Shown: piece after piece, positions 1 through 18,278 of the stretch
Layout: each line of letters opens with the position of its first letter
How positions within the stretch are numbered: the stretch's first letter is position 1
Origin: an uncultured Leifsonia sp.
GTDB taxonomy: Bacteria > Actinomycetota > Actinomycetes > Actinomycetales > Microbacteriaceae
NCBI RefSeq assembly: GCF_945957465.1
Contig: NZ_CAMFLC010000030.1
Location: 1-47,546, forward strand
Direction of reading: 5' to 3'
DNA length: 47,546 nucleotides
Translations under genes and position numbers: made by a program
The notes under the pieces: generated by a model
What the model was told of the DNA's origin: nothing
Database searches by the model: none
The model's input: only the letters and a program-made list of their open reading frames with translations

Positions 1-12
1 TATAAGAGACAG
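1..12. other. Probable Tn5/Nextera adapter remnant at contig end
   Basis: The first 12 bases, TATAAGAGACAG, are identical to the 3' end of the 19-bp Tn5 mosaic end used in tagmentation library adapters. A chance 12-base match exactly at the first base of the window is unlikely, so this is best read as untrimmed adapter at an assembly end. The first four codons of the adjoining reading frame should not be trusted. Confidence 0.8.
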
Positions 13-1273
13 GGACAGGCACGGCGCGGCCGACGGACACCGCGGGCTGGACAGGCACGGCGCGGCCGACGGACACCGCGGGCTGGACGGGCAGGCCGCC
101 GGCTACGCGGGCGACCCGACGCCGACGGGCGCCGCCGGCGACCCGCACGACACCTCCCACGCGGCTCCGCTGCTGCGCACCCGCCCGGAACGCCGCGCGG
201 CCATCCTGCGCGCCGGTCGCCTGATCGCCTCCCTCGGCATCACCAGCTACACCGAGCCCGGGCTCGGCCCGGGCGAAGACGCCGGCGCCACCGGCTGCTT
301 CGGCCAGGATGTGCTGGACGCCTACCTCGATCTCGACGCCGAGCGGGCTCTGACTGCGCGCGTGAACGTCCTGGCGCTGTACGGCGTGCTCGACGGCCCG
401 AGCTCGCTCGGCCCCGTGCTGGCCGGCATGCGCGCCCTGCGCCGCGGGACCGAGCGCCCCGACCGGCTGCGGATCGCCGGCGTCAAGATCTTCGCCGACG
501 GCATCCCGCCGATGCACCAGGCCTGGACCCGGCACACCTACCCGGACGGCACGCACGGCGGCCTGCTCGTAGACGGCCTCGATGCCGCCGAGCGCGCCGA
601 ACGCCTGACCGCCATGATCCGGGAGGCCGCCCGGCTCGGCCTCCAGGTGGGCGTGCACGCGACCGGCGACCGCACAATCGACACGGTCGTGGAGGCCGTG
701 GCCGCCGCCCGCGCGGAGTTCCCGGCCGACCTGCGCCACTACATCATCCACGGCGACCTCATCACGGCGGCCGCCCTGGCCCGGATGCGCAACCTCGGGA
801 TGGGGCTGAACGTCCAGCCCGGCATCGCGGTGCGCACGTCTCCCTGGCTGGCGGGCGTCCTCGGCGACGACGTGGCCGCCGCCGCCTGGCCGCTCGGTGC
901 CGCCCGCGCCGCCGGCGTCGCGGTGTCGCTGAGCTCGGACGCGCCGATCCTCGCACCCGACTGGCGGCAGGGCATCGCCGACGCCGACGCATGGATGGGA
1001 GCCCCGGCCCCCGGCGATGAGCGGGCGCGCATGCGCGGGCTCCTGCACGCCTACACGACGGTCCCGGCCTACCAGGACGGCGCCGAATCGTGGAAGGGCT
1101 CGCTCGAGCCTGGAAAGGCCGCCGACCTCGTCGTCCTCGCCGCCGACCCGCTGCAGCTCTCCCCCGCCGAGCTGCCGTCGGTCGCCGTCGACTTCACCGT
1201 CGTCGACGGCGAGATCGTCTACGACCGCGCCGGGCCCCTCCCGCCTCTGACACGCGCGCCGAGGGGCGCGTAA
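2..1273 (+). CDS. YtcJ-like amidohydrolase family 3, 3' part
   Basis: This is the C-terminal part of a metal-dependent amidohydrolase (TIM-barrel, YtcJ-like branch), truncated by the window start: the frame is open from base 2, although an internal GTG lies at 311. Visible family signatures are VKIFADGIPP (barrel lysine strand), VGVHATGDRTID (metal-ligand histidine), HYIIHGDLI, LSSDAPILAPD (catalytic aspartate) and the C-terminal beta-sandwich stretch SLEPGKAADLVVL. The N-terminal HxH strand is missing because of the edge. It resembles the complete amidohydrolase at 6720-8393, so the two are probably paralogues; the substrate is unknown. The last codons (TRAPRGA and stop) lie in the first unit of the repeat array at 1261, so the repeat defines the C terminus. 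Confidence 0.85.
   Translation: MRDRDRHGAADGHRGLDRHGAADGHRGLDGQAAGYAGDPTPTGAAGDPHDTSHAAPLLRTRPERRAAILRAGRLIASLGITSYTEPGLGPGEDAGATGCFGQDVLDAYLDLDAERALTARVNVLALYGVLDGPSSLGPVLAGMRALRRGTERPDRLRIAGVKIFADGIPPMHQAWTRHTYPDGTHGGLLVDGLDAAERAERLTAMIREAARLGLQVGVHATGDRTIDTVVEAVAAARAEFPADLRHYIIHGDLITAAALARMRNLGMGLNVQPGIAVRTSPWLAGVLGDDVAAAAWPLGAARAAGVAVSLSSDAPILAPDWRQGIADADAWMGAPAPGDERARMRGLLHAYTTVPAYQDGAESWKGSLEPGKAADLVVLAADPLQLSPAELPSVAVDFTVVDGEIVYDRAGPLPPLTRAPRGA
13..84. repeat. 36-bp perfect tandem duplication near the contig end
   Basis: Two identical 36-bp copies (13-48 and 49-84) begin GGACAGGCACGG and end CACCGCGGGCT; a third partial copy starts GGAC at 85. The unit is 12 codons, so the amidohydrolase frame stays open and the peptide DRHGAADGHRGL is repeated. 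It may be a real in-frame duplication, or an assembly artefact since it touches an adapter-derived end. Confidence 0.75.
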
Positions 1274-2040
1274 GCGCCCCTAAACCCGCGAAATAACGGC
1301 ACCAACTCGCCCCTCGCCCGCCCCTCGGAGCAGCGCGCCCGCCGAAGGGCGCGTAAGCGCCCCCAAACCCGTGAAATAACGGCATCAACTCGCCCCTCGC
1401 GCGCCCCTCGCGGAGCGCGGGCTCCGCGCGAGGGGCGCGCGGCTCGGCGCCCGCCGAAGGGCGCGTAAACGCCCCTAAACCCGCGGGACAGGGGCATCAA
1501 CTCGCCCCTCGCCCGCCCCTCGGAGCAGCGCGCCCGCCGAAGGGCGCGTAAACGCCCCTAAACCCACGGAATAGGGGCGTCAGCTCGCCCCTCCCTCACC
1601 CCTCGCTCGCCCCTCGCGGAGCACGGCTTCGCACGGCCGGCACGGCACACGACCCCACTGAAGGGCGCGTAGACGCCCCTAAACCCGCGGGACAGGGGCA
1701 TCAACTCGCCCCTCGCTCGCCCCTCGGAGCAGCGCGCCCCTCGAAGGGCGCGTTAACGCCCCTAAACCCACGGAATAGGGGCATCAACTCGCCCCTCGCC
1801 CGCCCCTCGCGGAGCACGGCTCCGCACGGCCGGCACGGCGCACGACCCCACCGAAGGGCGCGTAAACGCCCCCAAAACTGCGGAACAGGGGCACCAACTC
1901 GCCCCTCGCGCGCCCCTCGGAGCAGCGCGCCCGCCGAAGGGCGCGTAAGCGCCCCCAAAACCGCGGATTAGGGGCAACAACCCGCCCCTCGCGCGCCCTT
2001 CGGGGCGGGCGCGCCCGCCGCGGGGCGCGCAAGCGCAAGC
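1261..2040. repeat. Higher-order GC-rich intergenic repeat array (array 1)
   Basis: Eight copies of a unit starting G(A/G)(A/G)GGGCGCGTAA start at 1261, 1344, 1456, 1539, 1660, 1743, 1853 and 1936, with a decayed ninth near 2020. Spacings are 83, 112, 83, 121, 83, 110, 83. This is four tandem dimers of about 195 bp, each a short A unit (83 bp, ending near CTCGGAGCAGCGCGCCC) and a longer B unit (110-121 bp; later copies end near GCACGGCCGGCACGGC). Each unit can form two hairpins: GGGCG-CGTAAA-CGCCC and AGGGGC-ATCAACTC-GCCCCT. The array fills the 869-bp convergent gap between the amidohydrolase and the SDR. Minus-strand open frames here are by-products of the repeat and are not called. Array 2 at 17810 shares the core. 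Confidence 0.9.
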
Positions 2041-2075: not shown

Positions 2076-2130
2076 CCGGGGTCGCGGCGCGGCGCCGTCG
2101 CGCCGGTGAGGCGGCGTGCCGCGACCCCGG
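2076..2130. terminator. Large hairpin, likely bidirectional terminator
   Basis: Perfect 13-bp arms CCGGGGTCGCGGC (2076-2088) and GCCGCGACCCCGG (2118-2130), with further imperfect pairing inside the loop. It lies just before the 3' end of the minus-strand SDR and after array 1, between convergent genes. No T-tract follows, as is common in actinobacteria. Confidence 0.6.
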
Positions 2131-2142
2131 AGACGGGAGGCG

Positions 2143-2883
2143 TCAAGCGAGCAGTTGGCCGCCGTCGACGGGGAGGCTCACGCCGGTGATGTGCTGTGCG
2201 CCGGCGAGGAACACGACGGCGGGCGCCACGTCCTCCACCTCGGCCAGCCGTCCGAGCGGGATGCGCGACGACCAGGCCGCGCGCTCGGGCGAGCCCTCGG
2301 GCATCCCGGCGCGCAGCATCGGCGTCAGCACCGGACCGGGCGCGACCGCGTTGACGCGGATGCCCGCGCCCGCGAGCTCGATCGCGGCCCAGCGGGTGAG
2401 GGAGTCGACCGCGGCCTTGCTCGACTCGTACGCGCCCATCCCTGGGGTCGGCTGCCGGCCGCCGATGGAGGAGATGTTGACGATCGCGCCGCCCGTGCCG
2501 TGCGCGGTCATGTGCCGCGCCACCGCCTGGGTCACGGTGAAGGTGCCGAGGATGTTGACCCGCACGATGGTCTCGTAGTCGGCGGTGGAGAGCTCGGTCA
2601 GGCTGCCGTGCAGCGACAGGATGCCGGCGTTGTTGACCAGCACGTCGATGCGGCCGTGGTCGGCGGCGACCTCCTCGACGGCCGCGGTGACAGCGGCCTC
2701 GTCGGTGATGTCGAGCGCGACGGCGGAGGCCCCCGTCCCGAGGGCGGCGGCTGCCGCTGCCACCGCGTCGGCGTCGCGGTCGGCGAGGACGACTCGGTCG
2801 CCCACCGCCAGGAACGCCTCCGCGATGCCGCGGCCGATGCCGCCGGCACCGCCGGTGATCAGGATGGTTCGGGTGTCGGTCAC
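2143..2883 (-). CDS. Short-chain dehydrogenase/reductase (SDR)
   Basis: Classical SDR of 246 aa that would catalyse NAD(P)-dependent oxidation or reduction of an alcohol/ketone; substrate unknown. The cofactor motif TGGAGGIG is at residues 10-17, NNAG at about 84-87, the catalytic serine in NISSIGG (about 138) and the YESSK active site with Tyr152 and Lys156. The C terminus PVDGGQ is typical. The GTG at 2883 (VTDTRTILITGG) is chosen because an upstream ATG at 2910 adds nine residues with no SDR similarity and GAGAGG sits upstream of the GTG. It is transcribed divergently from the aldo/keto reductase. A consensus -10 TATAAT on the minus strand (2941-2936) lies inside the palindrome at 2935-2954. 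Confidence 0.88.
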   Translation of the reverse strand: MTDTRTILITGGAGGIGRGIAEAFLAVGDRVVLADRDADAVAAAAAALGTGASAVALDITDEAAVTAAVEEVAADHGRIDVLVNNAGILSLHGSLTELSTADYETIVRVNILGTFTVTQAVARHMTAHGTGGAIVNISSIGGRQPTPGMGAYESSKAAVDSLTRWAAIELAGAGIRVNAVAPGPVLTPMLRAGMPEGSPERAAWSSRIPLGRLAEVEDVAPAVVFLAGAQHITGVSLPVDGGQLLA

Positions 2884-2934
2884 GGTGGAGCCTCTCTGCT
2901 CGGCAGGCACCCGGCGTTCCGGGTCATGTCGTTA

Positions 2935-17809: not shown

Positions 17810-18272
17810 GGCACCCGAAGGGCACCCGAAGGGCGCACGAAGGGCGCATAGGCGCCCCTAAATGGGCGCTTTAAGCGCCCTTCGGCGCCCCTCGCCCGCC
17901 CTTCAGCACGGGGCGGCCGAAGGGTACGCCAGGCGCAGGTGAGGGGCAGGCGAAAGGCGCATGAGAGGCGCACGAAAGGCGCACCAGGGGCGCACACGAG
18001 GGGCGCACAAAGGCCCCTAAAGAGGCAGTTTAGGGGCGTATGGACGCCCCTCGGCCGCCCTTCAGTGGGGCACGGGCGGAGGCACCCGAAGGGCTCGCGA
18101 AGGGCTCGCGAAGGGCGGGTGAGGGGCGCGCAAACGCCCCTAAAGGAGCGTTTTAGGGGCGTTTGGACGCCCCTCGTCCGCCCCTCAGCGAGGGGCGGAC
18201 GAGGAGCGGGTGAGAGGCGCGCGAGGGGCGCGCGAGGGGCGGACGAGAGGCGCACGAGGGGCGCACGAAGGG
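17810..18272. repeat. GC-rich intergenic repeat array 2 (same family as array 1)
   Basis: Three imperfect units centred on CGCCCCTAAA (CCCCTAAA starts at 17855, 18014 and 18137). The best unit, about 18121-18174, is a long inverted repeat: GAGGGGCG, CAAACGCCCCTAAA, a short centre, then TTTTAGGGGCGTTTG and GACGCCCCTC. Between units lie runs of GAAGGGC(G/T)C and GAGGGGCGCACGA repeated every 9-15 bp. It shares the CGCCCCTAAA core and GAAGGGCGC edge with array 1 and, like it, fills a gap between convergent genes (aldehyde dehydrogenase and APC permease). From 17681 to about 17809 nothing recognisable is seen. Confidence 0.85.
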
Positions 18273-18278
18273 GCCGCG

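What the first reader, a model, noticed from the sequence alone, without database searches (positions are those of the whole stretch)
1261..2040. Higher-order tandem array with alternating 83 and 110-121 bp units
Eight units start at strictly alternating distances (83, 112, 83, 121, 83, 110, 83), giving four tandem dimers, each monomer with two potential hairpins. Alpha-satellite-like dimer organisation is unusual in a bacterial intergenic region; it suggests expansion by dimer duplication of an element that might act in termination, nucleoid binding or RNA structure.
Basis: seen in the sequence. Interest (0 to 1): 0.72.

Follow-up and report, generated by a model that had tools for sequence, protein, structure and literature searches.

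The report
Palindromic gene-end repeat, tandemly amplified
The array is eight side-by-side copies of a 57-base palindrome that this Leifsonia bacterium scatters just after the ends of its genes, where it probably forms hairpins that close or protect gene ends; repeats of this kind are known from other bacteria, but the fixed length of this family and the way related species carry different ones at the same gene ends are unusual.

Summary
The array is real: eight gap-free 57-bp units at 1260-1991, starts 83,112,83,121,83,110,83 apart, plus a ninth partial arm to 2036. The alternation lies in the linkers; the cores do not split into A and B classes. The unit is an amplified, partly decayed member of a dispersed Leifsonia palindrome (S1): 91 copies in the stretches taken, in 7 of 28 genus genomes including this one. 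A sister family, S2, is in 5 of 28. Facing half-sites are exactly 57 bp apart in 83 of 84 (S1) and 63 of 63 (S2) pairs. Elements sit a median 17-19 bp after stop codons; 90 of 140 placed clusters are between convergent genes, baseline 101 of 495. The 25-bp hairpin shows moderate covariation (3 of 5 measures above shuffles), the two-hairpin fold none. At orthologous junctions relatives carry S1, S2, a third palindrome or nothing. No RAYT, consistent target duplication or REP tag was found, nor a U-tract at the array. Best reading: a REP-like two-way 3'-end hairpin element, multiplied here by tandem duplication. Function is inferred, not shown.

The parts
1260..1316 (.). unit 1 (dimer 1, A): 57-bp S1 palindrome; holds the stop codon of the upstream amidohydrolase (TAA 1271-1273)
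   Evidence: ORF 311-1273 ends at 1273
1343..1399 (.). unit 2 (dimer 1, B)
1455..1511 (.). unit 3 (dimer 2, A)
1538..1594 (.). unit 4 (dimer 2, B)
1659..1715 (.). unit 5 (dimer 3, A)
1742..1798 (.). unit 6 (dimer 3, B)
1852..1908 (.). unit 7 (dimer 4, A)
1935..1991 (.). unit 8 (dimer 4, B); folds as two short hairpins
2009..2036 (.). partial ninth copy, left arm only
   Evidence: family D2
1398..1441 (.). extra perfect inverted repeat (arms 1398-1412 / 1427-1441) at the start of the first B linker
   Evidence: I25
2076..2130 (.). long GC-rich inverted repeat downstream of the SDR gene; a similar one lies at the same place in relative G010
   Evidence: I9; similarity read by eye
311..1273 (+). 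amidohydrolase (Amidohydro_3), 3' end runs into unit 1; the open frame reaches the start of the contig
2143..2910 (-). short-chain dehydrogenase, converging on the array
17838..17894 (.). S1 element in the second cluster of the window (convergent junction 17680/18279)
17997..18053 (.). S1 element, second cluster
18120..18176 (.). S1 element, second cluster; near-perfect hairpin, -45.1 kcal/mol
18189..18274 (.). tandem 11-mers (CGAGGGGCGCA) next to the element: the outer-arm 11-mer repeated

Best explanation
The array is a local tandem amplification of a 57-bp interspersed palindrome (S1) of Leifsonia. The element sits just past stop codons, mostly between convergent genes, and each copy can form a hairpin of up to 25 bp (11-14-7-14-11 layout) on either strand. 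I think it most likely works as a two-way 3'-end element: transcripts arriving from either gene fold into a strong GC hairpin that stops or pauses RNA polymerase and/or shields the mRNA 3' end. Extra copies in an array would add further hairpins. The A/B spacing arose because a two-unit block with its linkers was duplicated by recombination or slippage. Shown: the family, its placement, its length, and gain/loss or replacement between species. Partly shown: pairing kept through changes. Inferred: action on RNA, termination or protection, and the duplication route.
For: Placement: own genome 36 of 59 placed clusters convergent and 2 divergent; five relatives (plus one locus of a sixth) 54 of 81 and 0; baseline 101 convergent, 293 co-directional, 101 divergent of 495. 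Convergent junctions offer two gene ends each, i.e. 202 of 495 ends (41%), yet take 90 of 138 non-divergent clusters (65%; p 6e-9). Stop codon to element: median 17 bp (180 gene ends, convergent) and 19 bp (48, co-directional). Hairpin, 71 of the 91 own S1 copies: 85.4% of cells paired; 73 double-change cells against 56.9 in shuffles and covariation score 0.145 against 0.127, 0 of 500 reach either. S2, 24 copies: 94.8% paired; score reached by 1 of 500. S1 and S2 keep the same 57-bp hairpin plan with different inner arms. Two single S1 copies fold at -43.6 and -45.1 kcal/mol, z -9.0 and -8.5. Strong palindromes of any family at 57 of 137 convergent, 40 of 322 co-directional and 15 of 163 divergent junctions of 12 stretches (summed by hand). 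Other S1 arrays in the genome.
Against: The two stricter covariation measures do not beat shuffles: pairs with a change on both sides 12 against 11.3 (234 of 500) and pair types 32 against 30.4 (128 of 500) for S1; 196 and 176 of 500 for S2. No U-tract terminator in 1000-2400 (0 found; shuffles mean 1.6), and whether mycobacterial polymerase stops at hairpins without U-tracts is disputed (passages and reference titles of PMC12288462). If RNA pairing were selected, G-U should beat A-C mismatches on the mRNA strand of co-directional elements: own 39 vs 22 (p 0.04 by cells, 0.12 by sign), relatives 26 vs 27; together 65 vs 49, p 0.16. A fixed 7-bp spacer of free sequence is not expected of a plain RNA hairpin. 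Three of 15 orthologous junctions have only 12-22 bp and no element, so it is dispensable there. The three array units folded have weaker folds than the single copies.
Confidence: 0.47

Rival explanations
1. A non-autonomous mobile palindrome (REP- or MITE-like) with no job for the cell: it spreads by an unknown enzyme and survives mainly after stop codons because insertions elsewhere are purged.
For: Dispersed, lineage-restricted, high copy. Gain/loss at orthologous junctions with 12-22-bp empty sites. A species-specific change of pair 9-49: G at column 9 in 171 of 182 symmetrised rows here, A in 17 of 18 (G008), 27 of 28 (G024), 17 of 18 (G031), 19 of 22 (G023), 8 of 8 (G010) and 2 of 2 (G022) rows of relatives, as after a burst from a changed founder. 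S1 elements shared with G024 at two junctions are no more alike (73.7-75.4%) than random pairs (74.6%).
Against: No Y1 transposase (RAYT) in 28 of 28 genus genomes, the control ringing in 5 of 14. No consistent target-site duplication in 141 single copies. Convergent bias beyond the number of gene ends on offer: 65% against 41%. One length change in 147 half-site pairs where substitutions are common.
Confidence: 0.27
2. A duplex-DNA site: a nucleoid protein or topoisomerase binds the four GGGGCG/CGCCCC tracts (centres about 12, 21 and 12 bp apart by my count) and relieves supercoils or blocks polymerases between convergent genes, as recalled for BIMEs.
For: Rigid 57-bp length in 83 of 84 and 63 of 63 half-site pairs although the 7-bp spacer is only 45-73% (S1) and 50-83% (S2) conserved per column. 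Outer arms repeated head to tail at exactly 11 bp, about one helical turn (35 and 15 of 189 elements on the right and left flank). Convergent placement.
Against: Some covariation of the long hairpin beyond column shuffles, and S1 and S2 inner arms differ together across the axis; a duplex site needs symmetry but not such exchange of letters. No binding protein identified; not testable here.
Confidence: 0.19
3. Assembly artefact: the copy number or order of the array is made by the short-read assembler.
For: Draft genome in 112 contigs; S1 elements or arrays lie close to contig ends (C71, C105, C15, C77, C36), and the window's own first bases look like a library adapter remnant (recalled).
Against: Units differ from each other by 4-18% and linkers differ, so reads could be placed. 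The array is inside a contig. Four- and five-copy arrays lie inside C5 and C11 too. The single-contig relative G031 carries the dispersed family.
Confidence: 0.04

Closest known systems
REP / REPIN elements (RAYT-mobilised)
   Same: High-copy extragenic palindromes mainly downstream of genes, between convergent and unidirectional ORFs (PMC3733652 abstract and passages); tandem clusters that include flanks (PMC3116915, one section read and passages).
   Different: 57-bp near-complete palindrome rather than a 20-40-bp unit; no RAYT in 28 genomes; no consistent GTAG or CGTC end tag.
CGTC REPs without a known transposase (PMC3733652)
   Same: Palindromes in 3' intergenic space with no dedicated transposase known (abstract).
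   Different: CGTC touches the element end in only 14 (left) and 15 (right) of 187 elements; 'Leifsonia', 'Actinobacteria', 'Microbacterium' and 'Clavibacter' each have 0 occurrences in the main text of that paper.
MITEs
   Same: Short, inverted-repeat, dispersed, lineage-restricted.
   Different: No consistent target-site duplication; no parent transposon was looked for.
Hairpin terminators without U-tract in actinobacteria ('I-shaped') and hairpin clusters
   Same: GC hairpin within about 50 bp of the stop codon; hairpin clusters argued to terminate better, with tandem hairpins after gyrA of M. smegmatis as example (PMC8355165 and PMC12288462 passages).
   Different: Those are defined per gene by structure; here one sequence family with fixed length recurs across the genome.
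Rickettsia palindromic elements
   Same: S2 elements are read in frame at the 3' end of EamA genes in four species and in an FlhB gene.
   Different: About 150 bp and inserted in frame within ORFs (PMC10969869 passages); S1/S2 were called inside a gene in 8 of 157 clusters only.

Membership tests
REP / REPIN | High-copy extragenic palindrome, mostly downstream of genes | tested here: met
   91 S1 copies in the own-genome stretches; 90 of 140 placed clusters convergent, 48 co-directional, 2 divergent; 8 more of 157 called inside a gene, 9 at contig edges
REP / REPIN | RAYT (Y1 tyrosine transposase) in the genome | tested here: not met
   PF01797 in 0 of 28 genus genomes; control positive in 5 of 14
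REP / REPIN | GTAG or CGTC tag at one end | tested here: not met
   GTAG near ends 2 of 189 (shuffled flanks mean 10). CGTC 51 against 39 in shuffled flanks, a weak excess, but at the element end itself in only 14 and 15 of 187
REP / REPIN | Unit of 20-40 bp (size as given in PMC3733652) | tested here: not met
   57 bp in 146 of 147 half-site pairs; pairing beyond the ends at shuffle level
MITE | Target-site duplication | tested here: not met
   141 single copies, 2-8 bp, ten offsets: no consistent excess; largest 15 against 10.0 (2 bp) and 3 against 1.1 (4 bp)
MITE | Parent transposon with the same inverted repeats | not tested
   No search was made for an insertion sequence with these ends
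Canonical intrinsic terminator | Stable GC hairpin close after the stop codon | tested here: met
   Median 17-19 bp; -25.7 to -45.1 kcal/mol in the six elements folded, while a 76-nt stretch across linker and half a unit folds no better than shuffles, z -0.5
Canonical intrinsic terminator | U-tract after the stem | tested here: not met
   0 sites in 1000-2400; no run of T-rich columns in the flanks of 189 elements
Canonical intrinsic terminator | Transcripts end there | not testable with these tools
   Needs Term-seq
Alpha-satellite-like higher-order repeat | Two monomer classes alternating, each more like its own class | tested here: not met
   Cores A-A 87.8, B-B 85.8, A-B 86.4% (averaged); only the linkers alternate
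Known Rfam RNA | Match to a curated family | tested here: not met
   0 matches at gathering scores in the window
BIME / gyrase or nucleoid-protein site | Specific protein binding | not testable with these tools
   No binding data

The most novel reading that the evidence does not exclude
Leifsonia gene ends are plug-in sites for length-locked palindromes (57 bp for S1 and S2, others in other species) that are read as hairpins by a dedicated, still unknown protein. That protein both copies them without RAYT or target duplication and uses them as two-way barriers between convergent genes, so whole sets of gene-end elements are replaced from species to species while their position and geometry stay.
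Probability: 0.13. Interest if true: 0.75.

Novelty: new variant of a known kind. Interest (0 to 1): 0.45.

Why it matters
Small palindromic repeats at gene ends are best known (recall) from bacteria with a RAYT. Here an actinobacterial genus has high-copy families with strict length, no RAYT and no consistent target duplication, and orthologous convergent junctions that carry different families in different species. That makes a natural experiment on how gene ends of high-GC actinobacteria are closed without U-tracts, and on how such repeats spread. The array shows the unit multiplying in place. Eight literature searches on this topic (one search listed 12 of 269 papers and 8 of 31) listed no paper whose title or abstract start describes it; subscription journals are largely not held.

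Tried and rejected
Rejected: a unique satellite (86 matches in the genome, some being the two strands of one place). Two core classes A/B. Two short hairpins as the conserved fold: 91.1% paired, but all five measures at shuffle level. RAYT-driven REP. MITE with target duplication. Phage origin: 0 viral contigs with the exact core pattern. Family-wide element: R1 hits in 2 of 150 sampled family genomes, one of them this genome and the other with a best E of 2e-4; stricter filters applied.

Null or adverse results kept: the two stricter covariation measures. G-U versus A-C test (own 39/22, relatives 26/27; together p 0.16); a first version on all own elements looked better for co-directional ones (39/20) but was uneven in convergent ones too (61/106), which I put down to array copies. 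8 of 157 clusters were called inside a gene: four are tails of one EamA orthologue, one is an FlhB tail, and L128, L234 and L240 stay unresolved. Nine own clusters at contig edges were left out of the context counts. CGTC has a weak excess near the ends (51 against 39). At three further junctions relatives have S1 or S2 and this genome has neither (J5-J7). The palindrome count by loop size was uninformative because it recounts one centre; replaced. One search's tblastn part failed on file names and was redone. The peptide search (7, 46, 99, 47 and 61 matches in five genomes) mostly re-found S2 elements in six-frame translation and was not used further. The whole array folds at -435 kcal/mol, z -7.7 on 20 shuffles, which does not tell one fold from another.

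Limits: genes were called by a codon-usage script of mine, not by an annotation pipeline; the first version missed the SDR gene and was loosened. Copy numbers are lower bounds: one search is capped at 150 rows, i.e. about 75 places on two strands; C71 and C105 may overlap and count some copies twice. Stretches were chosen because they matched a 57-column model or a dimer query; both allow gaps, but strongly changed lengths could be missed. A3 holds 71 of 91 own S1 copies: the 8 array units and 12 others, nearly all from other arrays or contig ends, were left out. S1 loci from G023 and G031 were taken from the top of the list, so their high mutual identity is biased. Shuffle counts are not probabilities. 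The junction comparison is a small sample (15). Genome names for G008, G010 and G024 rest on equal contig lengths. The BIME-gyrase link and the Nextera end sequence are recalled.
Full report
OBSERVATION. The eight units are there at the stated spacings. The repeat finder returns nine copies of a 28-nt core spaced 83,112,83,121,83,110,83,84, and TRF finds period 193 x 3.7. In register, each unit is a 57-bp core with no gap; the ninth copy is only a left arm (to 2036). All four A linkers are 26 nt and nearly the same; the B linkers are 55, 64 and 53 nt, the last two sharing most of their length. Core identities do not form two classes (A-A 87.8, B-B 85.8, A-B 86.4%, averaged from that matrix). 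So 'four dimers' is right for spacing and linkers, and dimers 2 and 3 look like copies of each other, but there are not two monomer types.

WHAT THE UNIT IS. A query with one dimer gives 86 matches in the same genome, some being two strands of one place. Aligning copies gives a gap-free 57-column element, 11-14-7-14-11: outer 11-mer CGA[AG]GGGCGCx, inner 14-mer often ending CGCCCCTAAA, a free 7-bp spacer, and the mirror image. A matrix scan of the 57 own-genome stretches found 92 sites, one of them weak; with a second matrix, a stricter cut and three more loci, 91 S1 and 5 S2 sites. These stretches were chosen because they matched, so the numbers are lower bounds. Of 69 own clusters, 58 hold one element and 11 hold two to eight; this array is the largest. 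The outer 11-mer is sometimes repeated head to tail at 11 bp (35 of 189 elements on the right flank and 15 on the left); the second cluster of the window, 17838-18274, shows this well.

LENGTH. Looking for facing half-sites anywhere from 35 to 85 bp apart, S1 (57 own stretches) gave 83 pairs at 57 and one at 58; S2 (57 loci) gave 63 of 63 at 57. In the aligned S1 set of 71 there are 712 departures from consensus, 209 of them in the 7-bp spacer, and no gap (rows were cut at 57 bp, which is why the half-site test matters). Pairing stops at the 57-bp edge: beyond it, complementarity is at shuffle level. Fixed length with free spacer sequence is the oddest property of the family.

STRUCTURE. On 71 of the 91 own S1 copies the 25-bp hairpin is paired in 85.4% of cells, with 73 double-change cells (shuffle mean 56.9, 0 of 500 reach it) and score 0.145 (0.127; 0 of 500), and double changes and pairing are well above the slid controls. 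The two stricter measures, pairs with a double change (12 against 11.3) and pair types (32 against 30.4), are not above shuffles. S2 (24 copies) keeps the same plan with other inner arms and gives the same mixed result. So pairing is strong and covariation moderate. In the array the hairpin is partly decayed: units 3, 4 and 8 fold at -27.0, -32.3 and -25.7 kcal/mol, unit 8 as two hairpins, against -45.1 and -43.6 for two single copies.

PLACE. My codon-usage gene caller put own-genome clusters at 36 convergent, 21 co-directional and 2 divergent junctions, 1 inside a gene and 9 at contig edges; relatives' clusters at 54, 27, 0 and 7 inside. Baseline junctions on contiguous stretches: 101, 293, 101 (binomial p 1e-11 and 3e-19 for convergent excess). 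Counted by gene ends on offer, convergent junctions hold 41% and take 65% of the non-divergent clusters (p 6e-9). The distance from stop codon to element has median 17 bp at 180 convergent and 19 bp at 48 co-directional gene ends. In 11 gene ends the stop codon lies inside the element, 7 times at columns 12-14; this is so for the amidohydrolase at 1271-1273.

RELATIVES. Model R1 is found in 7 of 28 genus genomes, this one included (rows 150, 150, 112, 96, 34, 29, 8, mostly two rows per place, 150 being the cap), and in 2 of 150 sampled family genomes. Of 32 loci in the genome collection holding the exact core pattern, the 15 from Leifsonia match R1 over 48-57 positions, 6 others over at most 35, and 11 not at E 0.001. 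S2 is found in 5 of 28, this one included. At five junctions with S1 in this genome (four on C5 and the array junction), 15 orthologous junctions in relatives could be read. S1 was in 2, S2 in 3, and neither in 10. By eye, 5 of these 10 carry a third, ATTCGTG-type palindrome, 3 have gaps of only 12-22 bp, and 2 have long gaps I did not resolve. At three more junctions relatives have S1 or S2 where this genome has neither. The array junction holds two S2 elements in G010, and, by eye, short unrelated inverted repeats or none in four more distant species. Those four species, in which S1 and S2 were not found, have other long palindromes at some convergent ends (15 of 53 such junctions over the cut-off).

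SPREAD. There is no Y1 transposase, no consistent target duplication, no GTAG tag and only a weak CGTC excess. In this species pair 9-49 is G-C in nearly all copies where relatives have A-T, so the set has turned over together, by re-expansion or homogenisation. S1 elements at the two junctions shared with G024 are no more alike than random pairs. One S2 element, by contrast, is found at the 3' end of orthologous EamA transporter genes in four species and is translated there.

FUNCTION. Position, two-way symmetry and stem strength argue for a 3'-end hairpin serving both converging transcripts. Hairpins without U-tracts within 50 bp of stop codons are described for mycobacteria, and a U-tract requirement has also been claimed (PMC12288462, passages and reference titles seen); hairpin clusters are argued to terminate better (PMC8355165, passages). 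My one direct test for selection on RNA, G-U over A-C on the mRNA strand, was null in sum, and the fixed length points to recognition of geometry, so a DNA-level role or plain mobility stay serious rivals. I put 0.47 on the 3'-end hairpin.

KNOWN OR NEW. It works like REP-type gene-end palindromes but fails the tested REP markers (size, tag, RAYT), so I do not file it as REP. The kind is known; this family, its length lock and its species-by-species replacement I found in none of the listings I saw.

Noticed in passing
window 1-12: The contig begins TATAAGAGACAG, which I recall as the tail of the Nextera transposon end, followed by a 36-bp near-duplication at 13-93: probably adapter remnant and contig-end artefact.
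   Followed up: no
L184:546-1562, L237:555-1562, L245:555-1562, L183:1496-2506: In four Leifsonia species orthologous genes (82-93% identical; L184 matches EamA) end in an S2 element read in frame, giving the tail KGTSLSL...SDN.VPLG; the linker before it is variable.
   Followed up: partly
L249:399-1598: An FlhB gene of G024 carries nearly the same S2 peptide in the same frame in its C-terminal tail, just before the next gene.
   Followed up: partly
L185:13733-14151; L192:10253-10305; G023 and G006 stretches: A third palindrome type built of ATTCGTnACGAAT-like or ATTTGTG-like blocks, several about 53 bp by my count, at convergent gene ends and in arrays in several Leifsonia species.
   Followed up: partly
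G004 and G007 stretches, L250-L259: A palindrome of roughly 60-65 bp (AATCGA...GGGACTTATGCACG-like arms, loop often with CGACACGCCG) recurs at convergent gene ends of two species in which S1 and S2 were not found.
   Followed up: no
G000 contigs C71 end, C105 start, C15 start, C77 start, C36 end: S1 elements or arrays sit close to contig ends; C71 end and C105 start carry the same 105-bp-period array and may adjoin or overlap.
   Followed up: no
L032:8-409: Another S1 array with alternating spacing, 125, 94, 126 bp, at a contig edge: a second dimer-like array.
   Followed up: partly
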